Below, one piece after another: positions 253 through 18,810 of a stretch of 64,000 bases of DNA. Both the position numbers and the translations under genes were made by a program. A model generated the notes under the pieces. It was not told where the DNA came from and made no database searches. It was given only the letters and a program-made list of their open reading frames with translations. Source of the stretch: Opitutia bacterium (lineage in GTDB: Bacteria > Verrucomicrobiota > Verrucomicrobiia > Opitutales > Opitutaceae); assembly GCA_016187925.1 (NCBI GenBank), contig JACPIS010000029.1:1-64000 (forward strand), in the 5' to 3' direction. Position 1 is the stretch's first letter, and each line of letters opens with the position of its first letter.

Positions 253-609
253 CTACGACTTCAGGATTTTGTCGACTTCGACCGGGACCAAGCCCTGCGA
301 CCGTGCGATCATCATGAGCGTGTCGATTTTTTTGACCGGCATCGCGATCTTCGATTCCAACGCCGAGTCGTTCACCATCTGAACGATTTCTGTATCGTCC
401 CTTACCACGGACTCAAACCAAGCGAGCTCTGAATCGTATTTGAGAGTGTCAAAAAATGCCTTCGATACCTTTTGCGATTTCGGTCCACCGCATCCGGTGG
501 TGAAGTTCACCAAGGCGATTTGCCCAGCCTTGGGATCGCACAGAACAATCCAATAGTGCTCATTGGTGCCACCATCGATGTCGCCCCAGAAACAGTCACC
601 TTTGTTCAT
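253..609 (-). CDS. Small protein, putative toxin of a Panacea-type toxin-antitoxin pair
   Basis: A 118-aa protein that I do not recognise by family. It lies 10 bp downstream of a Panacea-domain gene on the same strand, the position usually taken by the toxin in such pairs, so the toxin role is inferred from context. The N-terminus (MNKGDCFWGDIDGGTNEHYW, then strand-like IVLCD and IALVNF) resembles the opening of small SH3-like barrel toxins such as PemK/MazF, but I cannot confirm that fold. The remainder is helix-rich and acidic/basic mixed. No signal peptide or membrane segment is visible. It could also be an unrelated small hypothetical protein. Confidence 0.6.
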   Translation of the reverse strand: MNKGDCFWGDIDGGTNEHYWIVLCDPKAGQIALVNFTTGCGGPKSQKVSKAFFDTLKYDSELAWFESVVRDDTEIVQMVNDSALESKIAMPVKKIDTLMMIARSQGLVPVEVDKILKS

Positions 610-619
610 GGCGACCGCT

Positions 620-1279
620 TCATGTGCCCATAAGCAGTGGTCCCGAGGCTAGTTTGCTGCGCGCCCGTTGGCGAACGGCAGCGACGATGGTCTCAGTCAT
701 GGAAATCGCGTCCTTTTCTTCGACCCCCTTCGCGTAGCGAAGAATGCGCTTAAGCGGAAGCGGCTTGCTGGATCCTTCCTTCACATCTTCCCACTCCTTG
801 CAGTTCTTGTGCATCCAATCGGCCAGGTTTCCTGTTTCCATGATCCCTTGGATCATGCGCGCAGTTTCACGAAGCACCTTTTCTTCGACCGGTGCCAATG
901 AATCGGTGTTCACCTTTCCCTTCACGCTGATCCGGTTTCCCTTCAATGAAAATGCCTCGTTCCAGCGCGCCTGAAGCGTGGTGAGCTTCGACTTCCCTTT
1001 GATGAAATTGTAAGTCTCGCTCAAGATCGGCCCCTTGGGCATCGACGAATAATTGTCACCGGTGATCGGCCGCGCATAGTCGATCAACATTTGCCGATCG
1101 GACACATACAGGATTTTGATGAGCGGAAACATGTCCACGCCGCCGCCAAGCTCGTCGCAGACAACGGCGGAAGCAGCAGCGATTTTGCGCAGGATGGCGT
1201 GATTCATGGTGGGCAAGATTAGTAAGGCGCCTGCCGCCATTTCTGGCGAACACAAACGTGGGGTTCGGACGCATTTCAT
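620..1279 (-). CDS. Panacea-domain (DUF4065, SocA-like) putative antitoxin
   Basis: A 219-aa protein. Residues from about 50 onward match the Panacea/DUF4065 pattern: a helix with FPLIKILYVSDRQ, then the hallmark DYARPITGDNYSSMPKGP and LSETYNFIKG, followed by a helical C-terminal half. Panacea domains are known antitoxin modules that neutralise many unrelated toxins by direct binding, and SocA acts as a proteolysis adaptor. The start at 1279 is chosen because AAGGAGA lies about 7 nt upstream; internal starts at 1207 and near 1130 would also retain the domain. It forms a two-gene unit with the small protein downstream. Together they probably act as a growth-arrest or abortive-infection module in this island. 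Confidence 0.75.
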   Translation of the reverse strand: MKCVRTPRLCSPEMAAGALLILPTMNHAILRKIAAASAVVCDELGGGVDMFPLIKILYVSDRQMLIDYARPITGDNYSSMPKGPILSETYNFIKGKSKLTTLQARWNEAFSLKGNRISVKGKVNTDSLAPVEEKVLRETARMIQGIMETGNLADWMHKNCKEWEDVKEGSSKPLPLKRILRYAKGVEEKDAISMTETIVAAVRQRARSKLASGPLLMGT

Positions 1280-1522: not shown

Positions 1523-2917
1523 CTAAGTCGTCCACATTTCTCGCGCCACCCGGCGGAGGATCGGATTTGAGCAAACCTCACACTTTGCGTGACGCTCTTG
1601 TAGCCGGCGCATGCGGAACACAGGGGACGACCACGGGCTCAATCGCCATTCGTTGAAGTTGCGCGTCGCGCCGTGCTTCCGAAGGACGAGCTCCAGGGCC
1701 ATGACCAGGCCGGCAAAGGATGAGACGAACGCAAAAGGAGTGAGGACCTGTTTGCCTGAATCCGATTTCAACTTGGCACTTCCGCAGAGCTGTTTGAACC
1801 AAGTGTCGTAGGCCGTTCCCGCGAGCTCGGCTTTGTTGAGCTGAGGATACTTTGTGGCGATGAGCTCGGCCGCCTCATCAGAAATCCGGCTTTCTTTGAC
1901 GAACGCGGCCGGCACGCCGAGTGCCTCCGCGACGTGTTCCTCATGCGCATTTTCATTAGGTGACTCGTAGTAGATGCAGGCGAGGCAGGCGTTTTCCGTG
2001 GGCTGTTTATGGTGATGGAAGACTGTCTCGATGGCGCCGCTGGTCGAGGCGTCGAACACCTCGCCCGGGATTTCCTTCTGGAGCTCTCGTCGGGCACGCC
2101 GGCTGTCCACCCCGGTGATGAGGGTTTTCAGCCACCGGCCACCTGGCGCGAGTTTCCTGTCGGGGTGCGATTGCAGGCGGTCTTTGAATGGAATCGATTG
2201 CAGAGAGGGATTGCTGAGTTTGAGTGCCTCGACCAACACGTCCGCTTTCGGAGAGTTGATGTCTTTTGCCTCAAAGATGTCGCAACGCTGCATGTTGCCT
2301 TCGGAAACATGGTCGTCGTCACAGACCACCAGCGTTCCGCGCAATTGAGGAAAGCAGGCAAGGCCGACTGCAAAGCCATTTCCTACGGCGCCGGCGCCGG
2401 CCAGGTAGGCGCGGCCGATGTCGATCGGCTCATCCAACCGGTGCAGTTCGTCATCGATCCATTCACTCAGGTCGAACTTGATTGCCCCCTTGAAGGCGGG
2501 AAGTGAGGGAATCGGCGGCAAGGCTGCCCGAAAAAGAGCGCCGGCGGCGTAACAGGCGCAGAGCTGAACTCCAATGGGGTGCAATGGGGCTGGCACTTCC
2601 TTCGCCAGGGGCTCCAGGCTGATGGCGGCCGACTGGTCGCCGCGGGTGAGATACACCGGCGTTGATGTGGTTCGTCGCGCGAAGTTGCCGATGACGAGTT
2701 CGGCCATCGCCTTTGGCGCCGGCGCGTTGATTAAGACCGCCGAAAGGCTTCGATTCAAAAGCCGCGCCACTTGGCGCGCCAATTTGCCGGCAGAAATGTC
2801 AGCGGGATCATGGCTGATCGCGACCTCGACGGCCAACTTCTCCGCGGCGGCACTTTCATCGAGCCCTAGCAGGCTTCCGAGCATGCGGGCGTTTTCTCTG
2901 CGGGCAGCTTCGTTCAT
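1523..2917 (-). CDS. E1-like (ThiF/MoeB fold) ubiquitin-like activating enzyme
   Basis: A 464-aa protein. The adenylation domain begins near residue 165 with the nucleotide loop AGAGAVGNG (173-181) and the following DDDHVSEGNMQR (200-211), the ThiF/MoeB/E1 signature. CLAC (311-314) and CEVC (446-449) look like the two CxxC pairs that hold zinc in MoeB/ThiF enzymes. The catalytic cysteine is therefore uncertain; the Cys in QLCGS is one candidate. The first 160 residues form an extra helical N-terminal domain with no motif I recognise. It is the last gene of a four-gene operon and its ATG overlaps the JAMM gene stop (ATGA). Inferred role: adenylate the Ubl C-terminus with ATP and pass it to the E2-like protein. 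Confidence 0.85.
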   Translation of the reverse strand: MNEAARRENARMLGSLLGLDESAAAEKLAVEVAISHDPADISAGKLARQVARLLNRSLSAVLINAPAPKAMAELVIGNFARRTTSTPVYLTRGDQSAAISLEPLAKEVPAPLHPIGVQLCACYAAGALFRAALPPIPSLPAFKGAIKFDLSEWIDDELHRLDEPIDIGRAYLAGAGAVGNGFAVGLACFPQLRGTLVVCDDDHVSEGNMQRCDIFEAKDINSPKADVLVEALKLSNPSLQSIPFKDRLQSHPDRKLAPGGRWLKTLITGVDSRRARRELQKEIPGEVFDASTSGAIETVFHHHKQPTENACLACIYYESPNENAHEEHVAEALGVPAAFVKESRISDEAAELIATKYPQLNKAELAGTAYDTWFKQLCGSAKLKSDSGKQVLTPFAFVSSFAGLVMALELVLRKHGATRNFNEWRLSPWSSPVFRMRRLQERHAKCEVCSNPILRRVAREMWTT

Positions 2918-3363
2918 CGGATCGCGATCTCCTGGTTGAAGGTAATTTCATCCCACTCATTGCTTTTGCTGAGAGAGAACACCTTGGTTTGCTCGACGAA
3001 GTTGGCCGCGGTGGTTTCCCGGGCGAAATACGGCAGCACAAGCGAGAGTGCGCCCGCGTGCTTGATGACGGCCATGGTGTCGTCGGCCCAAGAATGGAAG
3101 GCCTCCATCGGATGGGTGTGGACTTGGGCTGCGACCATGAGACGGTCCTTGCGCAGCTCTTCGAAAAGGAGCCGCATGCCTTTGGGCGGGATTCGAAAAA
3201 ACGCGCGGCCCGTCTCCTGCAGGGGCACGTAGACGCGTTGAACCACGGCATGTCCGGCCTCCTTTTTGGCGAGCCACAGCACGACGATTTCCTTGCGGCC
3301 CTTCCCGTAGATGGCGAGTTGGGCCAGAGTGTCGTCGATGATCGACGGCGAGATGGTGATCAT
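2914..3363 (-). CDS. JAB/JAMM-family metallopeptidase (deubiquitinase-like)
   Basis: A 149-aa single-domain protein. VHTHP (81-85) followed by S91 and D94 gives the zinc-binding H-x-H ... S-x2-D core of JAB1/MPN+ peptidases, although the spacing after the second His is one residue shorter than in AMSH. In bacterial ubiquitin-like operons this enzyme matures the Ubl tail and may remove Ubl from targets. The ATG at 3363 overlaps the E2 stop as ATGA, and the stop overlaps the E1 start the same way, so translation is coupled. Longer readings upstream would run inside the E2 gene. No signal peptide is present; the protein should be cytoplasmic. Confidence 0.85.
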   Translation of the reverse strand: MITISPSIIDDTLAQLAIYGKGRKEIVVLWLAKKEAGHAVVQRVYVPLQETGRAFFRIPPKGMRLLFEELRKDRLMVAAQVHTHPMEAFHSWADDTMAVIKHAGALSLVLPYFARETTAANFVEQTKVFSLSKSNEWDEITFNQEIAIR

Positions 3364-3800
3364 GTCGTCTTGGGCGCCTTGTCCCATCCATTCCAGATTT
3401 GGGTGATGAGGCCTGGCAGGTTGTTTTTGCTTTTCCCGCGATGATTGTCCCACGGGTCGTTCAAGTGATTCGGGTGGGTATGATATTCCTTGCTGCCGAT
3501 GGAGCAGACGAACGGTTTGCCCGTGACGTGGTGCGCACTCTGGTTGAACATCGGGTGTCGCGGCAGCTTGTCGGTGGGGCACGGTTCGCCGGAGGGCAGC
3601 AGCAGCGCGATGCTGGGCGGCGTATCGTTCCAGTCAGGCGCATGCATTTGCACCCGTAGTGGCATGCGCTCGGTCGACGCGAAGGTCACGTCCACCAATG
3701 GGTAGGCGGCCGCCTGCACCTCCCAGCCCCGCAGTTTGGCGAGGCTGAGGAGGGCGGGCATTTCGGCGTCGAAGAGGGCCTTGGCGGCGACTTCATTCAT
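3360..3800 (-). CDS. E2-like ubiquitin-conjugating (UBC-fold) protein
   Basis: A 146-aa protein. The order of features fits a minimal UBC fold: an N-terminal helix, strand segments around LVDVTF and LRVQMHAP, a Pro-rich segment (PPSIALLLPSGEPCP), then GKPFVCSIG with C99 as the likely active-site cysteine, followed by a His/Asn-rich YHTHPNHLNDPW and a C-terminal helix. The position between a Ubl gene and JAMM/E1 genes supports the call more strongly than sequence alone. The start at 3800 overlaps the end of the Ubl gene by 8 bp. Inferred role: accept activated Ubl from the E1 and conjugate it to targets, perhaps without an E3. Confidence 0.75.
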   Translation of the reverse strand: MNEVAAKALFDAEMPALLSLAKLRGWEVQAAAYPLVDVTFASTERMPLRVQMHAPDWNDTPPSIALLLPSGEPCPTDKLPRHPMFNQSAHHVTGKPFVCSIGSKEYHTHPNHLNDPWDNHRGKSKNNLPGLITQIWNGWDKAPKTT

Positions 3801-4107
3801 TGCCGCCGCCGGTCGCGTCGGGACCGTAGTCGATGGAAACCTCACCGTTGAGGCCCAGGTCCTGGTAGCTCTTGTTGGGGTCGAGGACCGTGTTGCCGAC
3901 CTTGGCGAGCCACCCGGCGGTGTCGCTGATGCCAAGGGCCTTGGCCGCCTTCTTGAGTTGCACGTCCAAGGGCTGGTTGATGGGAACTTCGTCGAAGTCT
4001 TGCTCCGGATAGGTTCCGCTGGTGGTGACGATGGCCACCCGAAGGTGGTTCGGCTTGGGCTTCTGGGAAGCGCCAGCCTGCTGGCCTGCTGAGGATTGAT
4101 TACTCAT
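3793..4107 (-). CDS. Ubiquitin-like beta-grasp protein
   Basis: A 104-aa protein. After a Ser/Gln/Ala-rich leader of about 20 residues there is one beta-grasp-like domain (strand LRVAIVTTSG, helix with VQLKKAAKALGI, strands near NTVLDPNKSYQDLGL and EVSIDYG). The C-terminus is TGGGNE: a glycine run followed by two extra residues, so a maturation cut, presumably by the JAMM enzyme, would be needed to expose a terminal Gly. It is the first gene of the Ubl-E2-JAMM-E1 operon, divergent from the LysR gene with 84 bp between. The domain is recognisable mostly from context plus its tail. Confidence 0.8.
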   Translation of the reverse strand: MSNQSSAGQQAGASQKPKPNHLRVAIVTTSGTYPEQDFDEVPINQPLDVQLKKAAKALGISDTAGWLAKVGNTVLDPNKSYQDLGLNGEVSIDYGPDATGGGNE

Positions 4108-4191: not shown

Positions 4192-5097
4192 ATGTTTGAA
4201 TCGTTGTTTTCCGACGGCGGCCTTTCTCTCGACCGACTTCGCGTTCTGGTCGAAGTGCATTATGCTGGTGGCATCGCCGCCGCTGCCCCGGACTCTCCGG
4301 TGAAGCAAAGCCAATACAGCACCCAGCTTCGTGAACTCTCGACGTTCTTCGGCACAGAATTAACGCAACGCGAGGGAAAGCGGCTGAAACTTACCGAGAC
4401 GGGGGTAAGGCTGGCCGAACTTGCGGCGAAGCAGCTTCAGGCGTTGAGCGACCTGCGCGCGGAATGCCTCGGTCGCATCGAGTATCGCGTTGGCACGGGA
4501 GACGGTTTGCTGCACTGGCTGGTCATCCCGCGGTTGACCGGCTTCACAGAGCGGCCGGCAAGGGTCGTTTTTTCGACACACAACCTTCGTAGCGGGGACA
4601 TCATCCGGCGGGTTCAGGAAACGCGCCTTGAATTTGGTATCGTCCGCTCAGATGCGGTGACTTCAGGTGTTCAGTCACTCTCGATCGGGCGGATGGAATT
4701 TTGCGGAGTGATCCCGCGGGCCCTGTGCAAGAAGAAGCCGCCGACCAGCATTGAGGACTTTTGCGAGCTGCCGTTGGCAGTCATGAGCACGGACGGTCAG
4801 TTCACTGATCGCATCAAGGAGGCGGCCAAGCGGCTCGGCGTAACGATGAACGTCACCCTCGCTTGTGAAAGCCACCCGCAAGCAATCGCGGCGGTTCAGA
4901 CCGGCAGATACGCGGCCATTGTCCCGTGCATCGCGATGAAGTCGCTCGGGCCCCAGTTTGTTGAGTTCCGGCACGCAGCCTTTAAGCCACTGGCTCGGGA
5001 TTTGTCGCTGATCTGGCATCCACGGATGTTGGAGATTCGGCCCTTGGGCCCCCAGGTGTGCGAGCACATGAAGGCGACATTTACCCAATCGATTTGA
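4192..5097 (+). CDS. LysR-type transcriptional regulator
   Basis: A 301-aa protein. An N-terminal winged helix-turn-helix spans about residues 10-65 (LSLDRLRVLVEV, then the recognition-helix region KQSQYSTQLRELSTFFG, then RLKLTETG), and a long linker helix follows (AELAAKQLQALSDL). The rest fits a periplasmic-binding-like effector domain. Unlike most LysR proteins, the first helix segment contains GGIAAAAPDSPVKQSQ, where AxxLxxSQPAxS is usual, so the HTH is divergent. It is divergent from the Ubl operon and only 24 bp before the zinc-ribbon/HEPN-like gene, so it probably controls one or both. Confidence 0.8.
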   Translation: MFESLFSDGGLSLDRLRVLVEVHYAGGIAAAAPDSPVKQSQYSTQLRELSTFFGTELTQREGKRLKLTETGVRLAELAAKQLQALSDLRAECLGRIEYRVGTGDGLLHWLVIPRLTGFTERPARVVFSTHNLRSGDIIRRVQETRLEFGIVRSDAVTSGVQSLSIGRMEFCGVIPRALCKKKPPTSIEDFCELPLAVMSTDGQFTDRIKEAAKRLGVTMNVTLACESHPQAIAAVQTGRYAAIVPCIAMKSLGPQFVEFRHAAFKPLARDLSLIWHPRMLEIRPLGPQVCEHMKATFTQSI

Positions 5098-5121: not shown

Positions 5122-6345
5122 ATGACCTTCCGCCGAGTGCTTGAATGTAGTGAATGTAAGACGACGGTGCTCACCCGATCGGCTGCGGGACATGCCAACT
5201 ATCAGGAGTTCGCGTTTCCGTGTCCGAAGTGCGGCATCGAGTTGCGATTTGGCATGAATCTCGACCAGAAGAATGCCGGTGTGGCATACCCGCTGGTCAA
5301 AAACGGCGAATGGCGCGACGACCTGCATGAAGCAGAACACGAGCGGAAGCTGGATACTGAGACGCTCGTGGCCGTGGAGGACAACGACGAGATGATGCCA
5401 TTCCTGCGGGCGCCATTCCTGGCCAAGGATTTTGAAAAATCCATGGAGCTGCATGCTGGCCGGTATCAGGCGATGCACCATTTCTGGCCGGAGCTGGAGA
5501 AGATGACGGTTCATCAACAGAGTAGAAACCGCGCTCTCCTAATCAAAGTTGCAAAAGGGATTAGTTATGACGACCCGGTGAAGACTGACGCTGACGCGTT
5601 GGAGCTTCTGCTCCGGGCCTTTGACACTTATGGTCTCATGTTCACGTGCGATGGAGGCACCGCGCGTGAAAAGGTGGATCAACTGATCCGGTCCGTGAAT
5701 CTGGCCGCTGGAGGTCAACCCGCGTTGGTGGAGTTTTACGAGGCCGAACACCGCTGGGTGAATCTCTGGACTCAATTGATGAGCTTGCGAAAAAAGTGGG
5801 CTGAACTCGTCGGACCGATCGTCTGGCCGGTTTTTCGGTCCGTCGATTGGGATCCGGCGAAGGCGAAGCTGTCGAGTTTCACCCTTTGCCAGAAGCGTTT
5901 CAGCGAGCTCGGGCCGTTCTATGTAGACGCATTCGAAACCCTCGGTCGACTTTCGGTGTTGGCTTCCGGGATGGAAGGCGTGGTGAAGCACAACCAGCCG
6001 GTGATTGCGTTGAAGACTCGCGAGATGCCGCTTGGCGAATTCGAGGCGACGCGCAACGGCCAGAAACCCGGGATCCTTGCTCGACTCGACATCGGTCCGC
6101 TCTTCGTTCCTTTCCTCGACTCGAAGTTACGCAACGGCATCGGTCATCACTCGGCACACTATCGTGCGAAAACGGACGATATCTATTATCAGAACCAGAG
6201 CGGCACGACCATCGAGCGGTTTTCAATCAGCTACATTGATTTTTGCGACAAGCTGATGCGATTGTATGCCCAGGTGGAAGCATGCGCGCCTTTGGTCGGC
6301 GTTCTGCGATTGAAAGTGAAAAAGGACGTATTGCCGTCGCATTGA
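5122..6345 (+). CDS. Zinc-ribbon protein with C-terminal HEPN-like RNxxxH motif
   Basis: A 407-aa protein of unrecognised family. Cysteine pairs CSEC (9-12) and CPKC (34-37) form an N-terminal zinc ribbon. The middle is helical. Near the C-terminus, KLRNGIGHH contains R337-N-x3-H342, the R-x4-H pattern (with Asn after Arg) that forms the RNase site of HEPN domains, followed by Tyr-rich YYQN and a helix, also HEPN-like. The gene sits 24 bp after the LysR gene and shares its strand, so it is probably co-transcribed with it. A HEPN RNase in this setting would fit an infection-triggered toxin, but that is inference from one motif and context. Confidence 0.6.
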   Translation: MTFRRVLECSECKTTVLTRSAAGHANYQEFAFPCPKCGIELRFGMNLDQKNAGVAYPLVKNGEWRDDLHEAEHERKLDTETLVAVEDNDEMMPFLRAPFLAKDFEKSMELHAGRYQAMHHFWPELEKMTVHQQSRNRALLIKVAKGISYDDPVKTDADALELLLRAFDTYGLMFTCDGGTAREKVDQLIRSVNLAAGGQPALVEFYEAEHRWVNLWTQLMSLRKKWAELVGPIVWPVFRSVDWDPAKAKLSSFTLCQKRFSELGPFYVDAFETLGRLSVLASGMEGVVKHNQPVIALKTREMPLGEFEATRNGQKPGILARLDIGPLFVPFLDSKLRNGIGHHSAHYRAKTDDIYYQNQSGTTIERFSISYIDFCDKLMRLYAQVEACAPLVGVLRLKVKKDVLPSH

Positions 6346-7412
6346 GCTAACTGATGATGAGGGTGATTCTTCAAGAGGCTGGATTTGGAGCTCCACACGT
6401 TCGCTGGAATGAGTTGAACGAAACAACCTGTCTGATTGGCAACCTCAGGGCAGGAAATGTCTATATCGACAACGGAGCCGCTGTCGTAGGTATATGGCCT
6501 GTAGCTTCCTGAATGCGGCCAGATGGGAGATGAACAGCGGTGCGTGAGCTGGCCATTCGGCAGCGATCAAAAGGGTTATCCTTGCTCTGTTAAGCAGCAC
6601 CTCGCAGAACGGCTACAAAAATGAACAAGCTTCAGATCGATCTCAAGTGTTGCTATGGTATTAAAAGCCTGAAGCACAATTTTGATTTCACAGCCAGCAG
6701 CGCTTTCGCCATCTACGCGCCCAATGGCTCAATGAAGTCATCGCTAGCTCAAACCTTCAGGGACGAGGGAGAGTCGGTACAGTCGAAGGACAGAATTTTC
6801 CCAGCTCGCGTATGCACCAGAGCGATTTTGGACGAGGGTAATGTCCCGCTCCCGCCTCAATCCATATTGGTTGTCCGGCCGTACGACGAGGTTTTTGGAC
6901 ACAATGAAAAAACCTCCACGCTGTTGGTCGATCCAAAGCTGCGCAAAGAATATGAGCAGCTTCACGTCGAGATCGATAAAGCAAAAGCGTTTTTCCTAGA
7001 AGCGCTCAAGGAGCAATCGCGTTCAAAAAAGGATTTAGAGAAGGAAATTTCTTCCACGTTCACCAAGAGTACATCCGAATTCTATCGAGCATTGATTCGC
7101 ATCAGAGACGAAGTTACGGCCCAGAAGGACGCTCCTTTTGCAGATGTCCAATACGACAAGATCTTTGATGAAAAGGTTCTCGGGTTTCTAGGGACCAAAG
7201 ATTTCAAGACGGCCATCGAACAATACATCACAAAATACAATGAACTCTTGGCCGCTTCTACCTATTTCAAAAAAGGTACATTTAACTACTACAACGCGGC
7301 AACGATCGCCAAGAGCCTCGCAGATAATGGCTTTTTTGACGCCAAACATTCAGTCAATTTGAATGCCGGAAACGTCCTTGAAATTAGGAGTCAATCCGAG
7401 CTGGAAGAGCTA

Positions 7413-8274
7413 GGGCGTGTATTCAAACCGCGTGGAACCGGATAAAGTAAGCCGGGTCGGAGGCGCCACCATGATGTATCCGAGTCGATGGGAGCTGGCG
7501 CAGCCGCTGTGGAAGCGGCTAAAAAAATTAACCTGAGTCGGCGCAAAACCCGGCGAGGGCAGATTGGCACACCTGGGGGGCGTCCTCCGCACGATGATCG
7601 GGTCATGGTTACGGGGATATGGTTTGTGCTGCGCACCGGTTGCCCCTGGCGGGACCTGCCGCCGCACTACGGCTCGTGGAGCTCGATCTACACCCGCTGG
7701 CGGCGCTGGACGGCCAGTGGTCTGTGGCGTCGCTTGTTGGCGCGACTGGCCCGGGGCGCCAAAGGAGCGCTGCGACATCTGGACTGCTCGCATATCAAGT
7801 TGCATCAGGATGGGGCCAATCCCCCGGGTGGCCAGCTGGCGCAAGCCATCGGGCGGACCAAAGGCGGCCTGAACACCAAGCTCGCCGCCGTCGTCGACCA
7901 ACATGGCCGGGCGGTCGATGTCGTCTTGGCCCCCGGCCCGAAACACGACCTGCATGCCGTGGCCCCGCTGCGGCGGTGCCTGCGGCGGCACCGGGTCGTG
8001 GCCGACAAGGGCTTCGACGCCGATGGTTTCCGCGCCGATCTGCGCGCGCAGGGTTCCAGCTGTTGTATCCCGCCGAGACGGGGCCGCCGCCATCCGGCTC
8101 GATTCCATCGCGGTTACTACCGGCACCGCCACCACATCGAAAATTTCTTTGGCCGCATCAAAAAATTTCGGCGTATCTCCACCCGCTACGAGAAGCTCGC
8201 CATCACTTTCTTGGCCTTCGTGCAGTTCGCTGCCGCTCTGGATTGGCTCACTCATCGGGTTTGAATACACGCCC
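7413..8274 (+). mobile_element. IS5-family insertion sequence (IS427-like group)
   Basis: An 862-bp element with perfect 17-bp terminal inverted repeats (GGGCGTGTATTCAAACC at 7413-7429 and its complement at 8258-8274), flanked by a TA duplication (7411-7412 and 8275-8276; CTA if the terminal C is counted differently). Its size, GC-rich content and DDE transposase fit the IS5 family, most like the IS427 group. Removing it restores the host gene exactly, so this insertion appears recent and has not decayed. Confidence 0.93.
7471..8264 (+). CDS. IS5-family DDE transposase, probably made by -1 frameshifting
   Basis: The frame opened at ATG 7471 (MMYPSRWELAQPLWKRLKKLT) stops after 21 codons, but ends on a canonical slippery heptamer, A AAA AAA (7521-7527). 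The -1 frame then runs open to 8264 and holds the whole catalytic core: the RTGCPWRDLPPHYG helix-turn-helix/insertion motif, D in LDCSHIK, D in VADKGFDAD and E in HHIENFFGRIKKFRR. This suggests a frameshifted fusion of about 265 aa; alternatively translation starts within the second frame, where an ATG exists at 7488. The terminus lies inside the right inverted repeat, as usual for this group. Confidence 0.85.
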
Positions 8275-11232: not shown

Positions 11233-11486
11233 AAGGGATAATTGCAAGCTCCAGCAAAGTTGACGACGAGATTCTAATCTCGCCACGGTCCTAAGGTTTC
11301 TTCCACACGGTGAAACAACCGTTCGAGGCGGTCGATATTTCTGCTTCTCGCTTGAGATTAGGACAGAGCGCGATTGTGCTGAAGATATTGCCTCGGGCCA
11401 GAGGCGAAAAACTTACTCTTATGTCCCGGCAGCCTACGGCCGGCCTCAGGCCCGTTATCCATCCCTTCTTGTTTTCAAGGAGTAGC

Positions 11487-14400
11487 ATGGCTTTGAGGCG
11501 AACGATTTGGTCGGGCCTATTCGCAGGCATTATTCTACTGACTGGCGGCTGCAGCACAGAAACCGCACCTCCAGCGATAAATCCAAGCGCGGAGATCGCT
11601 GCGAATGCCACGAAGGATGTCTCGAAGGCAGAGCCGCCGCAACCTACCCCGCCACCCCTCTCTGTCCCAGCCACTCCACACGCGGACCCGTCACCCGTCG
11701 CCTCAACCTCGACAAAGGTCCTTCAAACTCCGGAGACCATTTTAACCAGAATTCAACCCCCGCCCCCTCAAGCGGCGCCTCCGTCTGAGGCGCCACCGCG
11801 TAACGTGACCTCACATCCGGAGAGCGCGGTTCAGACGCAGCCGACGCCCGCTTCGGTCGCCTTGTCGCGGCCAATCGCCACCCTGCCACCTAGTCCTCAG
11901 GAAGATTTTCCGGTTGGTGGGCTCGTCGTGCTTCTCGTGGGCGCCGCATTAGTTTGGGCCATTTTCATGGGTGTCTATGGCAATTCTGAAACGGTGCGAG
12001 TCCGACGCCAAGTTAGAGACACATTGGCCGCCTTCGAGGGCGCACTCAAATCCCAGAAAGACCTGATCGAAGAACTGCAAACAGCCTACAAAACGGCCGC
12101 ATTGGATTATCTCGCCAGTATAAGGCGGGGATACCTCCAACAAGTTACCGTCGATGAAATCCGCAAGGTCACCCCTGGTGTTCGCCTGCAACCGCTCAAG
12201 GATCACGGAGTGACCAACTTGTTGGCCTGCCAAGGCTGGACCACGGCCCGCCTTGAGCAATTGCGTGGAATTGGCCCCGAGTCGGCATCTCGCATTGCCC
12301 TGGCCATTGTTGCTTTGACCAAATCAGTCAATAGCCAGCCGATACCGCATCCGTTGCCAGGAGCACCGGGAGCTGATAAAATTTACCGTCCACTGTACCT
12401 TGTTCGCCACTTGCGGCTCAAGTTCTTCGACCAAATGCCTGTCCTACAAGCGATCTGTGAAGAACTGGAGCCACAATGTGCATCCGTCCAGAAACGGACC
12501 TCATTCATTAAATGGCTTTTCGGATCGCAAAAGAATGGTGACCTTCATGCGGCGTTAGACACTGGGCTGAAGCTCACAGGAAAAGCCAATCCAACGGAGC
12601 GGGAAGGGGCTGCCCTTGTCCTCGCAAAGGACCGCTATGCCGCGGCAAAGCTGCTGGTTGATGGCAAGGTGACCAGCGATCGTTTGATAATGGATGTCGC
12701 CGAGGCGAAGGATTACTACCGCGAAGGCTTGGAACAACTGCTCGGCAAAAATTCCATGCAGCGCATGGCAATGTCGCCGCCGCGTTCGGACGCAGTGCCG
12801 CCAAGAGAAATGAAAGAGTCGGTGACGGAATTGGAAACTTGGCGGGCTCGCACTGCACCGGCCGCAGAATCACGCAGGCTCGATTCCTGCTCAGAAGTCT
12901 CGCCAGCAACAGAACCGGTCCCGATGCGGCTAAGCGGAACCGACGGCGGGGTTGGGTTTCGTATCAGCGTCAAGATTGGCGACGTTGAGATCGATCCGGT
13001 TCCAACAAAGGCCGCGACACGCGCAGTCGATTGCTGGGTACCGGCCGGGCAATCGAAGTCGATAGGTAGTGTAACCCTCGAAGGCGGTCTGCTGTATGTC
13101 GGCAAGAATTTACCGGCAATCAACGGCCGCTCGGTCGATCCAGCTTTGATCGATCCGGCCTTGCCCGTCGCGACACGAGAAGCGAATTGCCGGATCCGCA
13201 TGTTGGACTACTGGTCGAGCTATACCTACGCCAGTCCGGGCGCGCGGGCTTCCTATTTACAGTGGCTGGCAACGGGCCGGAGTGACCCCGATGCTGATAT
13301 TGGATACGTCTTTTTGTATTTCTATGGGCTGGAACGACGCGTTTTGGCGGACGCCCGTACCGACCCGACCGCTAGATCAGAAATCCCTACCATTATTGCC
13401 GAAGTTCGCCGGCTGCGTGCTATCTATGCCCAACGTGCCAGCTTCGACCGCTATTCGGTGGAATTTACCGACTATTTGGAGGGTGCGCGTACCGTGGCAG
13501 TCACCGCACAGGAAACGGAAGAGCTGCCTCTGCTTCAACAATACCATCTGTCGTTTGCCCTGAGAAGGAAACTGGGACAATTCGCAGAAGACCGTAGGCC
13601 ATTACCCTCCGAATGGGCTTACGCGTGGTATCATAACGATCCGCGTACGCGACTTCCAGCCGTTGCCTCTCGCTGTCCCGTCCAACTTGCACTGCTCTTC
13701 CGTCAGGAATACCTTAAACAATTTGGCGACGGCTTGATTGTCGCCCCTGGCAAGACCCGGCTCCGATTGAGCTACCGTCCAGCGAGCGCTTCTTTTGGCA
13801 CTACGCTCGATCAATCTGTAGATCTGCCGGACGTTACAGTGATGAGCGCAAGCTACACCAAGCTGGAGTCGGTCGCTCTCGAATGTTACGCTCAACTCGA
13901 CGCCTACAGCCGTTTCATCGGCCGCAACAAGGACGCCAAAGACTCATTCGAGGGATCAATCCTGCTGCCGGTTAGCTTGTGGCCAATGGAAAAACGGGAT
14001 GCCCTCGAGGCTCTGCGTGCGAAGGCCTCGGCCTTCCCCACATGCACCCTGCGCGAACTACTTGCCCCTTGGGGCAAACAAGAGGAACTCTCTCGCGGTA
14101 CCTATCTCGGACTTTGCAGAACACTTGCCGGATCTGGATTGGGAATGGAACCAGATCCTCGTTTTGGCGCGGAGATCCCTGATCTTGACGATCTCGTGGC
14201 GCTTTTCCCTGGCGATACAGAAGGACAACCGTCGGCTGGATTCGGGCTGGCCGCATTGTTGTTGAGGCTGGCTTCCACCGTAGCCGCATCCGATGGTGAT
14301 TTCTCGGACGCAGAAGCGCAAAAGCTTCGGCAGGAGATCGAGGCAAATCGCGACCTGAACCAAGGCGAACGGCGGCGATTGCTGGCACGGATGGCAATCT

Positions 14401-15062
14401 ACAGGGCCAAGACGCCCGCACTCACTGGACTCAAGCCCGCTATTTCCGCCCTCTCAGAAGAAAAGCGTCAACGCGTTACCGATTTCCTGCTGACCATGGC
14501 CTTCGCTGATGGCACGGTAGCTCCCGGCGAGGTCAAGGTGATGGAAAAGGTTTATACGCTTTTCGGTCTCGACCCGGCCACACTCTACACCCGACTTCAT
14601 GAATTGTCTGCTGGAAGTTCACCTGCGGCCACCAAGCAGTCGGTGACAGGTCCGATCCGGCTTGATGCCTCTAAGGTGCGGCAATTGCGGGAGGCCTCGG
14701 AGCAGATCACCAAGAAACTGGCCATCATCTTTAATGCGGACCAGCCGCCCGAAGAATCGGTGCCAGAAGTCGAAAAGGATCCTGCCGGTGTTGATCCTAC
14801 GGCCACGGTATTGGTGTTGGATGAAGCTCATTCCGGATTGCTGATGCTCCTTACTGGACGGCCGCAATGGAGTCGGACTGAGTTTGAGGAAGTGTGCGCT
14901 GACCGAGGCCTCATGCCTGACGGGGCAATCGAGAGGATAAACGAGGCCGCTTTTTCCAAATTCGACCAACCGGTAATCGATGGCGATGATCCTCTCGAGA
15001 TCGCCATGCACCTACTGGAGGAACAACTTTATGCCGCCGACAATTCGACAAAAGGACCGTGA
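11487..15062 (+). CDS. sngA: TerB_N/TerB/TerB_C protein, Shango SngA-like, with lipoprotein-like signal
   Basis: A 1191-aa protein starting at ATG 11487, which has AAGGAG 6 nt upstream; a longer frame upstream lacks support. Residues 1-22 read as a lipoprotein signal ending LTGGC. A Pro-rich linker (45-135), a membrane helix (143-163), a coiled coil (170-205) and a helix-hairpin-helix (LRGIGPESASRIAL, 259-272) follow. Then come TerB_N (about 515-720; CWVPAGQS, GLLYVG, GYVFLYFYGLERR), TerB (about 950-1080; ASDGDFSDAE, FADGTVAPGEVKVMEKVY) and TerB_C (about 1095-1190; VLVLDEAHSGLL). The family is the first component of the three-gene Shango anti-phage system. The membrane anchor is unexpected and could place the complex at the envelope. 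Confidence 0.85.
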   Translation: MALRRTIWSGLFAGIILLTGGCSTETAPPAINPSAEIAANATKDVSKAEPPQPTPPPLSVPATPHADPSPVASTSTKVLQTPETILTRIQPPPPQAAPPSEAPPRNVTSHPESAVQTQPTPASVALSRPIATLPPSPQEDFPVGGLVVLLVGAALVWAIFMGVYGNSETVRVRRQVRDTLAAFEGALKSQKDLIEELQTAYKTAALDYLASIRRGYLQQVTVDEIRKVTPGVRLQPLKDHGVTNLLACQGWTTARLEQLRGIGPESASRIALAIVALTKSVNSQPIPHPLPGAPGADKIYRPLYLVRHLRLKFFDQMPVLQAICEELEPQCASVQKRTSFIKWLFGSQKNGDLHAALDTGLKLTGKANPTEREGAALVLAKDRYAAAKLLVDGKVTSDRLIMDVAEAKDYYREGLEQLLGKNSMQRMAMSPPRSDAVPPREMKESVTELETWRARTAPAAESRRLDSCSEVSPATEPVPMRLSGTDGGVGFRISVKIGDVEIDPVPTKAATRAVDCWVPAGQSKSIGSVTLEGGLLYVGKNLPAINGRSVDPALIDPALPVATREANCRIRMLDYWSSYTYASPGARASYLQWLATGRSDPDADIGYVFLYFYGLERRVLADARTDPTARSEIPTIIAEVRRLRAIYAQRASFDRYSVEFTDYLEGARTVAVTAQETEELPLLQQYHLSFALRRKLGQFAEDRRPLPSEWAYAWYHNDPRTRLPAVASRCPVQLALLFRQEYLKQFGDGLIVAPGKTRLRLSYRPASASFGTTLDQSVDLPDVTVMSASYTKLESVALECYAQLDAYSRFIGRNKDAKDSFEGSILLPVSLWPMEKRDALEALRAKASAFPTCTLRELLAPWGKQEELSRGTYLGLCRTLAGSGLGMEPDPRFGAEIPDLDDLVALFPGDTEGQPSAGFGLAALLLRLASTVAASDGDFSDAEAQKLRQEIEANRDLNQGERRRLLARMAIYRAKTPALTGLKPAISALSEEKRQRVTDFLLTMAFADGTVAPGEVKVMEKVYTLFGLDPATLYTRLHELSAGSSPAATKQSVTGPIRLDASKVRQLREASEQITKKLAIIFNADQPPEESVPEVEKDPAGVDPTATVLVLDEAHSGLLMLLTGRPQWSRTEFEEVCADRGLMPDGAIERINEAAFSKFDQPVIDGDDPLEIAMHLLEEQLYAADNSTKGP

Positions 15063-16356
15063 CACTGTCATCCAGGCTCTGCGCATGGGCGTAGTACCTC
15101 GCACCGGACAACACCTGATTCAGGTCGGCCGCGTGAAGGAAATCGACGCCCTGCTTAAGAACCTCGATACGATCGCGGACGGCGGTACGGCCTTTCGTCT
15201 GGTCATCGGAGAGTACGGATCGGGAAAAACTTTTTTTCTGAACCTTATTCGAGCCGTCGCCCTTGAGAAGAAACTCGTGGCCACGAGTGCAGATCTGAAT
15301 CCTGACCGTCGGTTGCAAGCGTCAGGCGGCCAAGCCCGGTCGCTCTATGCTGAGCTTGCTAAGAACCTATCGACCCGAACGAAAGCTGACGGCGGCGCCT
15401 TACCCGGAATCGTCGAAAAATTTATCTATACCGCCACCACCGAGGCCAAGCAGGAAGGCGCAGAAGTCGGCGTGGTGATTCATCGGAAGCTCGCGCGCTT
15501 GGCCGAAATGGTGAACGGCTACGACTTCGCCCGGGTGATCGAAGTCTATTGGAGCGCATCCCAAGCAGGAAACGAGCAGCAGAAGGCTGACTCGATCCGT
15601 TGGCTCCGCGGCGAATTTACCACCAAGACCGATGCCCGCAATGCGCTTGGGGTCCGCACCATCGTAGAAGACTCCAACATCTATGATCAACTAAAGCTTC
15701 TCAGCGTCTTTGTTCGGTTGTGTGGTTTCAGCGGGCTTCTCATCTGCCTCGATGAGATGGTCAACCTCTACAAGATTTCGAATGCCCAGTCGCGCAACGC
15801 CAACTATGAGCAAATTCTGCGCATTCTAAATGACGTGATCCAAGGCTCAGTTGAGGGTCTAGGCTTCATTCTGGGAGGTACACCCGAGTTCCTGCTCGAT
15901 ACCCGCCGCGGATTATTCAGCTATGCGGCGCTTCAATCTCGTTTAGCGGAAAACGCCTTCGCCAAGGACGGGTTGGTGGATTACCAACATCCGGTCGTCC
16001 GCCTCTCGAGTCTGACTCAGGAAGATTTTGTGGTTTTGCTGCACAAGATTCAGCATGTGTTTGCCGGTGGAGATGAGACCAAATACCCGCTCCCAGATGA
16101 AGCCCTCACTGCGTTCATGGCCCATTGCCAAGAGCGCATCGGGGAAACATACTTCCGTACGCCACGCACCACCATTACGGCGTTTGTGGGGCTACTTGCC
16201 GTTCTCAGCCAGAATCCGGGCACGGATTGGAAGCTGCTGATCAACGAGCTGCCCCTGGCCAAAGACGAGGGCGGGACCACTGACACGGCGCTCGAGCCGG
16301 AGACACCCATGACGCCTGCCTCCAGCGATGACGAATTTGCCAAGTTCAAGCTCTGA
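15031..16356 (+). CDS. sngB: P-loop ATPase (DUF2791/BrxD-like), Shango SngB-like
   Basis: A 441-aa ATPase. Walker A is GEYGSGKTF (60-68) and Walker B LLICLDEM (236-243). The opening pattern (a helix, then VGRVKEIDALLKNLD before the P-loop) is that of the DUF2791 ATP-binding proteins found in BREX (BrxD) and Shango. ATG 15031 has GGAGG about 10 nt upstream and lies 32 bp inside the end of sngA, so the genes are translationally coupled. The C-terminus is acidic and Thr/Ser-rich. Expected to act in the cytoplasm with the TerB protein and helicase; the exact mechanism of Shango is not known to me. Confidence 0.87.
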   Translation: MPPTIRQKDRDTVIQALRMGVVPRTGQHLIQVGRVKEIDALLKNLDTIADGGTAFRLVIGEYGSGKTFFLNLIRAVALEKKLVATSADLNPDRRLQASGGQARSLYAELAKNLSTRTKADGGALPGIVEKFIYTATTEAKQEGAEVGVVIHRKLARLAEMVNGYDFARVIEVYWSASQAGNEQQKADSIRWLRGEFTTKTDARNALGVRTIVEDSNIYDQLKLLSVFVRLCGFSGLLICLDEMVNLYKISNAQSRNANYEQILRILNDVIQGSVEGLGFILGGTPEFLLDTRRGLFSYAALQSRLAENAFAKDGLVDYQHPVVRLSSLTQEDFVVLLHKIQHVFAGGDETKYPLPDEALTAFMAHCQERIGETYFRTPRTTITAFVGLLAVLSQNPGTDWKLLINELPLAKDEGGTTDTALEPETPMTPASSDDEFAKFKL

Positions 16357-18562
16357 GCCGCAATCCCGGAACTTCGAGCTACTCGACCCGCGTATCCAGC
16401 GCTGGTTGTGGCAGGCCGGCTGGACCAGTCTCCGCGATGCACAAGAGTTAGCGATCGCTCCCTTGTTAGCCGGCGATCGGGACCTGATCATCGCCGCAGC
16501 CACCGCCTCGGGAAAAACGGAAGCTGCTTTTCTGCCAATTCTGACTCGGCTAGCCAAAAGCGACGAACCGAGGCTGGCAGTCTATGTTGGCCCGCTCAAG
16601 GCGTTGATCAACGATCAGTGGCAACGATTGGAAGGATTGTGCGACATACTGGAAATGCCAGTGACTCCTTGGCACGGGGATATTTCCGCATCGCACAAGG
16701 CGCGGTTTCTCAAGCGACCAGCCGGTTGCCTATTGATCACCCCCGAGTCGCTGGAAGCTTTGCTTATGCGTCAGGGCAATGCCGCCGCAGGTGCGCTGGC
16801 AGCCGCAGACTATTTTGTGATTGATGAACTCCACTCGTTCTTGGGTACAGAACGAGGCAAACAACTGCAGTCGCTGCTTAGCCGTTCGGAACGTCTGATC
16901 CAGCGCCGGGTCTGCCGCGTAGGGCTTTCCGCCACGCTGGGTGATATGAACGGCGCGCGTGAGTTTCTCCGTCCTGGCGGCGCCCAAGAAGTCGATCTGA
17001 TCGTGGCAAAGCAGGCCGCGCTCGATCTCCACATCATACTCAAGGGCGTCCTGGAGCCCGTTGTCGATGCGACCAAGACAGAAGAAGAGGACGAACCGAA
17101 CCTTGTGGCAAAGACAGGCATTGTTACCGACCTGTATCGAACTCTGCGTGGCTCAAACAATCTCGTGTTTCCTAATAGTCGCAGCGCAGTTGAATTCTTC
17201 GCTGATCGCCTCCGCAGCCGCTGCGAAACAGAGCGCGTTCCAAACGAGTTCTGGCCGCATCACGGCAATCTAGCCAAGGAGATCAGAGAGCAAGCTGAAG
17301 CCGCGTTGAAACAAAAGACGATGCCAGCTACAGGCATCTGCACGAGCACCCTTGAACTGGGCATCGACATCGGGGCCATTAAAAGCGTGGCTCAGATCGG
17401 GCCACCGCCGTCGGTGGCCAGCTTGCGTCAACGTCTGGGGCGTTCTGGCCGTCGAGAAGGTGAACCAGCGGTTCTACGCAGTTATGCAATCGAACGCCAA
17501 TTAACCCCGCAGTCCAGCCCTACTGACCTGCTTCGCGTTAATCTGCTGCAATCTATCGCGATGATTCGGCTGCTCCTGCAAGGCTGGTACGAACCAGTGT
17601 CGGTTGCAGGGTTGCACTCGTCCACCATGGTGCAACAGGTGCTTTCGGTTATTTCTCAACACGGCGCCGCTACAGCGGGACGCCTTTGGGAAATCCTCTG
17701 CGAACGGGGAGCATTTACCGGCATGCCCCGGGATCTTTTCGCCTCTCTCTTGCGCGGGCTCGGAGCCAAAGAAATTATCTTCCAAGACGCGACCGGGCTG
17801 CTTCTCCTGGCGCCCAAAGGGGAAAAAATATGCGGGCATTACAGCTTCTATGCGGCCTTCAGCTCTCAGGAGGAATTCCGACTTGTCGCTGGCGGTCAGA
17901 CCTTAGGTTCGATGCCTGTTTCCCGGCCCTTGTCGCCCGGAAGCTTCGTCATCTTCGGCGGTCGCCGCTGGCAGGTGGTATCAGTTTCCACCGACGATCT
18001 GGTGATCGAAGTGAAACCGGGAGCCGCCGGCGCCCTTCCGGCGTTTGAAGGTCAGTATGGCGCCACGATCCATGGCCGAGTCCGGGAGGAGATGCGCCAT
18101 ATCCTGCGGGGCAACGAGCCCGTTCCCTTCCTAGACAAGATCGGTACGCGATTACTGGAGGAGGCACGTAGCACCTATGGTCGTCTCGATTTGGACAAGG
18201 AGTGGGTGCGCGAGGCCGGTACCGAAGTTCACCTATATTGGTGGAAGGGGGACCGAATTAACGACACATTAGCCCTCATGCTGCAGGCCCGCGCACTGCC
18301 GACGATCAATCATGGAATCTATTTAGAGGTCCGAGGCGCGGATAAAGTCGGGGTGACGGAAACTTTGCACGATCTGTCTCAAATTGAGGACGCGGAGAGC
18401 TTGGCAGTTGCATCCACCGTACAAAACAAGATCCGTGAAAAATGGGACGGCTTGCTCGCGGAGGACGTTCTGGAGGCCTCTTTTGTGTCCAACAGCCTTG
18501 ATATTGCCGGGACGCTTGCAGCTCTACGAACTGCCTGTGTGCCAGACCCTAGGCGGCGATGA
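16328..18562 (+). CDS. sngC: DEAD/DEAH-box (Lhr/BrxHI-like) helicase, Shango SngC-like
   Basis: A 744-aa superfamily 2 helicase. Motif I is ATASGKTE (58-65), motif II DELH (166-169), motif III SAT (201-203), and motif VI lies in QRLGRSGRREGEPA (about 365-380). After the two RecA-like domains the C-terminal part resembles the winged-helix/DUF-type tail of Lhr and BREX helicases. The start at 16328 overlaps sngB by 29 bp with no clear Shine-Dalgarno site, so it likely depends on coupling to sngB. With TerB and DUF2791 genes before it, the order is that of Shango. Confidence 0.87.
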   Translation: MTNLPSSSSEPQSRNFELLDPRIQRWLWQAGWTSLRDAQELAIAPLLAGDRDLIIAAATASGKTEAAFLPILTRLAKSDEPRLAVYVGPLKALINDQWQRLEGLCDILEMPVTPWHGDISASHKARFLKRPAGCLLITPESLEALLMRQGNAAAGALAAADYFVIDELHSFLGTERGKQLQSLLSRSERLIQRRVCRVGLSATLGDMNGAREFLRPGGAQEVDLIVAKQAALDLHIILKGVLEPVVDATKTEEEDEPNLVAKTGIVTDLYRTLRGSNNLVFPNSRSAVEFFADRLRSRCETERVPNEFWPHHGNLAKEIREQAEAALKQKTMPATGICTSTLELGIDIGAIKSVAQIGPPPSVASLRQRLGRSGRREGEPAVLRSYAIERQLTPQSSPTDLLRVNLLQSIAMIRLLLQGWYEPVSVAGLHSSTMVQQVLSVISQHGAATAGRLWEILCERGAFTGMPRDLFASLLRGLGAKEIIFQDATGLLLLAPKGEKICGHYSFYAAFSSQEEFRLVAGGQTLGSMPVSRPLSPGSFVIFGGRRWQVVSVSTDDLVIEVKPGAAGALPAFEGQYGATIHGRVREEMRHILRGNEPVPFLDKIGTRLLEEARSTYGRLDLDKEWVREAGTEVHLYWWKGDRINDTLALMLQARALPTINHGIYLEVRGADKVGVTETLHDLSQIEDAESLAVASTVQNKIREKWDGLLAEDVLEASFVSNSLDIAGTLAALRTACVPDPRRR

Positions 18563-18734: not shown

Positions 18735-18810
<76 letters not shown>

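What the first reader, a model, noticed from the sequence alone, without database searches (positions are those of the whole stretch)
1523..4107. Complete ubiquitin-like conjugation operon: Ubl, E2, JAMM and E1
Four overlapping genes encode a beta-grasp protein with a glycine tail, a UBC-like protein with Cys99, a JAMM peptidase (HTHP...S..D) and a ThiF-fold E1. This is the component set of the bacterial Bil/Bub anti-phage systems, but in the order Ubl-E2-JAMM-E1, whereas bilABCD runs Ubl-E2-E1-JAMM as I recall it.
Basis: partly seen in the sequence, partly recalled or inferred. Interest (0 to 1): 0.85.

Follow-up and report, generated by a model that had tools for sequence, protein, structure and literature searches.

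The report
Divergent Bil-type ubiquitin-like conjugation operon
A bacterium carries an intact four-gene kit resembling our ubiquitin system, in the usual Bil gene order and beside other anti-virus genes, so it is a distant cousin of a known bacterial immune system rather than a rearranged new one.

Summary
On the minus strand, 4107 to 1523, four intact overlapping genes encode a ubiquitin-like protein (104 aa), an E2 (146 aa), a JAMM peptidase (149 aa) and an E1 (464 aa). Models of Ubl and E2 have beta-grasp and UBC folds. The best solved relatives of E2, JAMM and E1 by sequence are BilB, BilC and BilD, and key catalytic residues are conserved (C99, E25, C378).

The claimed novelty does not hold. 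In the published naming BilC is the JAMM and BilD the E1, so bilABCD already runs Ubl-E2-JAMM-E1. E2-JAMM-E1 follow in this order in 24 of 26 close-relative records (the other two are cut or interrupted) and in all 11 Bil loci fetched.

The operon belongs to a diverged clade (E1 tree support 100/100; seven phyla by record labels), provisionally sister to the crystallised Bil lineage, with an E1-N domain, a short E2 with HTHxxH and a GPxxGGGG-type Ubl tail. It lies near Shango, with a tRNA gene beyond. Many relatives have HTH plus ImmA/IrrE-type genes upstream; here a LysR gene takes that place. Anti-phage activity and target were not testable.

The parts
3793..4107 (-). Ubl (BilA-like), 104 aa, one beta-grasp domain, tail YGPDATGGG-NE
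   Evidence: 31-46% identity to 17 relatives; G100-G101-G102 invariant in 18 rows; AlphaFold2 pLDDT 78.7; Z 11.0 to BilA 8tyz_B, tied with SUMO
3360..3800 (-). E2 (BilB-like), 146 aa, catalytic Cys99, CEHH motif C99/E105/H107/H112
   Evidence: Metal_CEHH 1.5e-9; BilB 8.9e-7; C99, H107, H112 in 24 of 24; pLDDT 93.6; Z 16.2 to BilB
2914..3363 (-). JAMM isopeptidase (BilC-like), 149 aa, E25, H82, H84, S91, D94
   Evidence: PADLOC BilC 3.6e-14; 8tyx_B BilC 3.2e-12; conserved; the script's numbering is +2
1523..2917 (-). E1 (BilD-like), 464 aa: E1-N domain, ThiF adenylation domain, Cys378, CxxC pairs 311/314 and 446/449
   Evidence: PADLOC BilD 2.5e-6; 8tyz_A BilD 3.6e-17; C378 aligns with BilD C417; trees
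4192..5097 (+). LysR-family regulator, divergent, in the place of the HTH/ImmA or WYL regulators of relatives; link to the operon is inferred from position
   Evidence: LysR_substrate 2.8e-23, HTH_1 3.7e-11
11310..18562 (+). Shango SngA-SngB-SngC in the same stretch (context, not part of the operon)
   Evidence: SngA 2e-88, SngB 1.1e-173, SngC 7.8e-256
18735..18810 (+). tRNA-Met just beyond the defence-gene stretch (context)

Best explanation
A complete, probably functional Bil-type ubiquitin-like conjugation operon of a diverged lineage, encoded in a defence island. Inferred mechanism: the JAMM peptidase trims the two residues after the glycine run of the Ubl; the E1 adenylates the exposed glycine and holds it on Cys378; it passes to Cys99 of the E2; the E2 conjugates it to a target, by analogy a phage structural protein, and the JAMM can remove it. 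Component identity, gene order, folds of Ubl and E2 and conservation of catalytic residues are shown here. The order of chemical steps is inferred from the Bil literature. Anti-phage function is inferred from homology and neighbourhood. The target and the role of the LysR gene are unknown.
For: Best solved relatives BilD, BilB, BilC; PADLOC BilC and BilD models. L010's E1 is near-identical to the crystallised BilD and its numbering gives C417, E2 C138 and JAMM E33, which align with window C378, C99 and E25; C417 and C138 are named as catalytic in PMC11354881 and E33A is in a PDB molecule name. E2 model Z 16.2 to BilB against 9.7 for the next family. Same order in relatives and in both Bil groups. 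The closest relative's Ubl (L012) matches PADLOC BilA at 1.8e-32. Neighbours include Shango, a PDC-S46-like ATPase and an Mrr-type nuclease. 15 of 22 related loci have an HExxH protein upstream and 11 of 55 upstream proteins match Peptidase_M78, the kind of regulator that controls immune operons after DNA damage (PMC13373217, passages).
Against: Identity to the crystallised Bil lineage (L010) is only 26-31%. PADLOC's BilA and BilB models do not hit the window proteins. Its BilD hit (2.5e-6) is slightly weaker than its best E1-E2 hit (7.3e-7). By Foldseek the Ubl model ranks SUMO first and BilA 11th and 14th. The clade is separate from published Bil E1s, and its join to one of them comes with a long-branch warning. 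The window lacks the regulators common in relatives. No close relative was found to measure selection: 1 of 387 genomes in the phylum sample has a match, which is this one. No experiment on this lineage was read.
Confidence: 0.87

Rival explanations
1. A Bub-type (bacterial ubiquitination-like) operon.
For: Same kind of component set and partly similar regulators: 219 of 544 Bub operons are associated with CapW or CapH+CapP (PMC13373217, passages).
Against: As recalled from the abstract of Ye et al. 2026 (not held), Bub works through serine oxyesters, sometimes with a serine protease. Here E2 C99 and E1 C378 are cysteine in 24 of 24 and 25 of 25 sequences and the protease is a JAMM. Best solved matches are Bil proteins. 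No Bub sequence was compared directly.
Confidence: 0.04
2. A stand-alone cousin of the Cap2/Cap3 (type II CBASS) conjugation machinery.
For: A PADLOC E1-E2 model matches the E1 slightly better (7.3e-7) than BilD (2.5e-6).
Against: E1 and E2 are separate genes, a Ubl is encoded, and none of the ten neighbouring genes scanned is a CD-NTase. Structures point to BilB.
Confidence: 0.03
3. A housekeeping or stress protein-modification operon rather than phage defence.
For: No phage data; a LysR regulator; the authors of PMC13373217 note that related Bub operons have not been shown to protect against phage and may serve global stress responses.
Against: Patchy, cross-phylum distribution, plasmid carriage, defence genes nearby, immune-type regulators in relatives.
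Confidence: 0.2
4. A decayed, inactive remnant.
For: The neighbouring PDC-S46-like ATPase is interrupted by a transposase gene.
Against: Four intact overlapping frames with the catalytic residues kept.
Confidence: 0.05

Closest known systems
Bil (bilABCD) of the crystallised lineage (PDB 8tyx, 8tyz, 8tz0; L010 of Mesorhizobium loti is near-identical in E1)
   Same: Four genes in the same order; catalytic E2 Cys/His/His, JAMM E/HxH/SxxD, E1 Cys and CxxC pairs aligned and conserved; E2 fold Z 16.2
   Different: 26-31% identity; E1 464 against 519 aa with E1-N instead of Prok-E2_C at the N-terminus; E2 146 against 205 aa; HTHxxH in E2; Ubl not DUF2604
Bil of the PADLOC BilA-positive lineage (L055-L057; presumed, not checked, to be the kind of the Collimonas system that modifies the phage central tail fibre)
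   Same: Same four components in the same order; BilC model hits the window JAMM 3.6e-14; the Ubl of the window's nearest relative L012 hits BilA 1.8e-32
   Different: E1 on a very long separate branch; window Ubl and E2 not hit by BilA and BilB models
Iyer, Burroughs and Aravind 2006 operon type 6c (Rhizobium NGR234 megaplasmid)
   Same: An early description of E1 + JAB + predicted 'metal-binding' protein operons (PMC1779556, section 14 read); an NGR234 replicon holds a relative of the window's JAMM and Pfam's Metal_CEHH covers the window's E2
   Different: What I take to be the predicted metal-binding protein is the E2, by the later BilB structure and by the model here (the equation with type 6c is my inference)
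Bub operons
   Same: Ubl, E1, E2 and protease set, immune-type regulators
   Different: Serine oxyester chemistry (recalled) against cysteine here

Membership tests
Bil (bacterial ISG15-like, bilABCD) | Four adjacent genes Ubl-E2-JAMM-E1 in that order | tested here: met
Bil (bacterial ISG15-like, bilABCD) | E2 with UBC fold and the BilB C-E-H-H active site | tested here: met
   C99/E105/H107/H112 at the spacing of BilB C138/E144/H146/H151; Z 16.2 to BilB
Bil (bacterial ISG15-like, bilABCD) | JAMM peptidase related to BilC with catalytic Glu and HxH...SxxD | tested here: met
Bil (bacterial ISG15-like, bilABCD) | E1 related to BilD with a catalytic Cys aligned to C417 | tested here: met
Bil (bacterial ISG15-like, bilABCD) | Beta-grasp Ubl with a C-terminal glycine | tested here: met
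   (fold match tied with SUMO; the two BilA chains have the highest identity, 24%, in the 50 rows)
Bil (bacterial ISG15-like, bilABCD) | Two consecutive Ubl domains in BilA, as the review states | tested here: not met
   One domain in the window Ubl. Not treated as defining, since the first gene of the crystallised lineage in L010 is also a short protein (98 aa, DUF2604)
Bil (bacterial ISG15-like, bilABCD) | E1 inside the clade of published Bil E1s | tested here: inconclusive
   Separate clade, 100/100; grouped with the crystallised lineage apart from PADLOC-type Bil at 95/90, with a warning that long branches meet
Bil (bacterial ISG15-like, bilABCD) | Ubl conjugation and phage protection | not testable with these tools
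   needs experiment
Bub | Serine instead of cysteine at the E1 and E2 active sites (recalled) | tested here: not met
   C99 in 24 of 24 and C378 in 25 of 25
Type II CBASS | E1-E2 fusion beside a CD-NTase (recalled) | tested here: not met
   Separate E1 and E2 genes; no CD-NTase among the ten neighbours scanned

The most novel reading that the evidence does not exclude
A third Bil lineage, not known to me to have been tested, spread over seven phyla by record labels, with its own E1 N-terminal domain, a compact E2 with an added invariant histidine (H109) and a GPxxGGGG Ubl tail, in which DNA-damage regulators can be swapped for a LysR-type sensor, so that conjugation answers a different cue or hits different targets from published Bil.
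Probability: 0.4. Interest if true: 0.55.

Novelty: new member of a known kind. Interest (0 to 1): 0.36.

Why it matters
It suggests that Bil-like conjugation is more diverse than the two Bil groups sampled here: one conserved gene order across seven phyla (by record labels, many of them metagenome bins), with three deep E1 branches. The clade is a compact test set for which parts of a bacterial E1-E2-Ubl relay are essential and which are replaceable. PADLOC's BilA and BilB models miss the window's Ubl and E2, so surveys that require them may undercount such operons. The specific reason the finding was flagged, a different gene order, does not stand, because the order is the standard one.

Tried and rejected
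Rearranged order: rejected. Bub or CBASS membership: rejected on active-site residues and gene layout. Phage or viral carriage: no match to the E1 in 50,697 phage records, and in viral contigs 209 stretches matched a pattern but none was confirmed. A single-protein scan of genome contigs found nothing; the profile scan gave 38 loci. The Ubl gave no meaningful match in Pfam, PADLOC, NCBIfam or the PDB by sequence, alone or, for the PDB, as a profile. No NCBIfam model reached its cut-off for any of the four. Promoter and terminator scans were at or below shuffled expectation. The tRNA-Met boundary was looked for in three related genomes; only the tRNA and a few bases matched, so the island's empty site was not shown. 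The organism was not identified. First tree: the eight crystallised-lineage rows needed two changes and two rows were very long; the second tree has fuller E1 ends, three more Bil E1s, is drawn with the fourth E1 group as outgroup by my choice, and leaves out L006, L023, L028, L029, L030, L043, L045, L048 and the MoeB-like rows. Of 16 plasmid records with an E1 match six were fetched; L037 (E1 tail only, contig ends there) was left out of every count and tree. Key Bil and Bub papers (Millman 2022, Chambers 2024, Hor 2024, Gong 2025, Ye 2026) were not readable: the last four were asked for by id and are not held, and Millman was not asked for. Whether they already cover this clade is unknown; no claim of being unpublished is made (searches).
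Full report
What is there. The minus strand of 4107-1523 holds four intact frames: Ubl 4107..3793, E2 3800..3360, JAMM 3363..2914, E1 2917..1523, overlapping by 8, 4 and 4 bases.

Identity of the parts. Pfam gives ThiF (3.9e-16) plus E1-N (4e-11) for the E1, Metal_CEHH (1.5e-9) for the E2, Prok-JAB (2.1e-5, just under cut-off) for the JAMM and nothing meaningful for the Ubl. PADLOC gives BilC 3.6e-14 for the JAMM and BilD 2.5e-6 for the E1, the latter slightly behind an E1-E2 model (7.3e-7), and nothing for E2 or Ubl. Against solved structures by sequence, the best hits are BilD for the E1 (8tyz_A, 3.6e-17), BilB for the E2 (8tyz_C, 8.9e-7, the only hit) and BilC for the JAMM (8tyx_B, 3.2e-12); the Ubl has no meaningful hit.

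Folds. The E2 model (20 sequences, mean pLDDT 93.6) matches BilB 8tz0_C at Z 16.2, rmsd 2.1 over 133 residues; the next rows are eukaryotic UBC enzymes at Z 9.7 and below (Foldseek). The Ubl model (18 sequences, mean pLDDT 78.7, about 90 across the domain) has the order strand-strand-helix-strand-strand-strand. Foldseek ranks SUMO chains first and BilA chains 11th and 14th; in the second look BilA 8tyz_B has Z 11.0 with 24% identity, tied with SUMO.

Catalytic residues. L010, on a Mesorhizobium loti plasmid, has an E1 near-identical to the crystallised BilD. In its numbering the aligned residues are E1 C417, E2 C138 and JAMM E33. A review names C417 and C138 as the active cysteines and lists the BilB motif C138/E144/H146/H151 (PMC11354881, passages read); a PDB molecule name carries BilC E33A. 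The window has C378, E2 C99/E105/H107/H112 with identical spacing, and JAMM E25. On sets that leave out L006, L015, L021 and L031 (broken, duplicate or near-duplicate), E2 C99, H107 and H112 are kept in 24 of 24 window-clade sequences and 8 of 8 crystallised-lineage sequences; JAMM E25, H82 and H84 in 25 of 25 and 8 of 8; S91 and D94 in 24 of 25 (one gap) and 8 of 8; E1 C378 in 25 of 25 and 8 of 8 (whose JAMM numbers are +2). E105 is not invariant: L008 has Q and L034 has D there. E2 H109 is invariant in the window clade (24 of 24) but not in the Bil set (3 of 8). Window identity to the L010 proteins is 31% (JAMM), 28% (E1) and 26% (E2).

Gene order. The review and the PDB labels say BilC is the JAMM and BilD the E1. 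In my scan, E2-JAMM-E1 appear in that order on one strand in 24 of 26 close-relative records (L005-L009 and L012-L034 without L015 and L031, which repeat L005 and L007; L021 and L022 are near-duplicates, both counted; the JAMM of L023 is spread over two frames). The two exceptions are L006 (E2 missing, JAMM shortened, an IS110 gene upstream) and L033 (contig starts there). L037, an E1 tail at a contig end, is not counted. The order is the same in 8 of 8 loci that I assigned to the crystallised lineage and in the three fetched loci outside the window clade that match PADLOC's BilA model (the E2 of L056 and L057 was placed by reading frames, not by HMM). So the order here is the ordinary one.

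Placement. A profile scan of genome contigs gave 38 loci, 23 of them aligning over most of the E1. The window E1 falls in a clade with 99/100 support in a tree of 44 rows and 100/100 in a tree of 36 rows; nearest is a Limisphaerales MAG (L012, 49% identity). Members carry NCBI labels from Verrucomicrobiota, Acidobacteriota, Pseudomonadota, Myxococcota, Bacteroidota, Campylobacterota and Fidelibacterota; several phyla rest on a single metagenome bin. In the second tree the window clade joins the crystallised Bil lineage, apart from the PADLOC-type Bil and a fourth E1 group, at 95/90; the program warns that long branches meet, so this join is provisional. Two bridges support a Bil reading: the Ubl of L012 matches PADLOC BilA at 1.8e-32 over residues 11-172 of 258, and L036 (Pseudoneobacillus) has a DUF2604 Ubl like the crystallised lineage but ending GGGGNE like the window clade. 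PADLOC's BilB model hits 11 of 20 E2s of the clade (best 1.5e-5), not the window's.

Ubl tail. In an alignment of 18 rows (the window and 17 of the loci) three glycines are invariant; 11 of 18 have one or two residues after the run (the window has NE) and 7 of 18 end on it; L009, not in that alignment, has five. Inference: trimming is needed in some members only, yet a JAMM gene is found beside the E1 throughout, so it probably also removes conjugates.

Setting. Upstream on the other strand is a LysR gene (4192-5097), then an unassigned gene and a PDC-S46-like ATPase split by an IS4/5-type transposase; next come an Mrr-type nuclease (minus strand), Shango SngA-B-C and a tRNA-Met at 18735. Downstream on the same strand as the operon is a SocA_Panacea gene. 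For relatives I scanned 55 upstream proteins from 22 loci (54 of 122 frames listed, chosen as the nearest divergent ones, plus one annotated gene of L005): 11 match Peptidase_M78, 14 HTH_31, 5 RES and 1 WYL; 15 of the 22 loci have an HExxH protein there. I take M78 plus HTH pairs as CapP/CapH-like and the WYL gene as CapW-like by recalled domain make-up. Such regulators are described as DNA-damage controllers of immune operons (PMC13373217, passages). The window has LysR. In the phylum sample of 387 genomes only this genome has the E1, while one same-genus genome carries a PADLOC-type Bil with an HTH/M78 pair.

Mechanism and limits. The most likely mechanism is the Bil relay. A Bil-type system from Collimonas is reported to attach Ubl to the phage central tail fibre (PMC11364771, passage citing Hor et al.). 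Nothing here tests conjugation, phage protection, target or the LysR link.

Verdict. A real, complete and interesting operon, but a divergent member of a known kind, in the standard order. I could not read the primary Bil and Bub papers, so I cannot say whether this clade has already been surveyed.

Noticed in passing
window 6621-9650 (+): A PDC-S46-like ATPase gene is split: 6621-7445 matches model positions 1-260 (2.9e-85) and 8577-9650 positions 362-718 (3.4e-153), with an IS4/5-family transposase gene at 7488-8264 between them.
   Followed up: partly
window 11310-18562 (+): A full Shango set: SngA-like C-terminal part of a 1250-aa protein, SngB, SngC. The SngA-like protein has about 530 N-terminal residues outside the model match.
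   Followed up: no
window 253-1279 (-): SocA_Panacea antitoxin-like gene (620-1279, 5.1e-14) followed by a 118-aa gene without a family, a possible toxin-antitoxin pair downstream of the operon.
   Followed up: no
window 5122-6345 (+): 407-aa protein without a Pfam or PADLOC match at E 0.01, between the LysR gene and the split ATPase.
   Followed up: no
L012:4328-5101: The nearest relative's Ubl is 258 aa and matches PADLOC BilA over residues 11-172, with the window clade's own beta-grasp and GGGGNE tail after it: a possible link between Ubl types.
   Followed up: partly
L057 (G181, same genus): A same-genus genome carries a PADLOC-type Bil operon with a divergent HTH plus Peptidase_M78 pair, so two distant Bil kinds occur in one genus.
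   Followed up: partly
L042, L043, L044, L046, L048, L049 (and L045, E1 only): A further E1 group next to a JAMM-like gene (no JAMM hit in L045), with no E2 recognised by my profiles; long branches, identity not settled.
   Followed up: partly
L006 (Bradyrhizobium septentrionale plasmid): A member of the clade whose E2 is missing and JAMM shortened, with an IS110 transposase gene upstream; the E1 frame is open.
   Followed up: no
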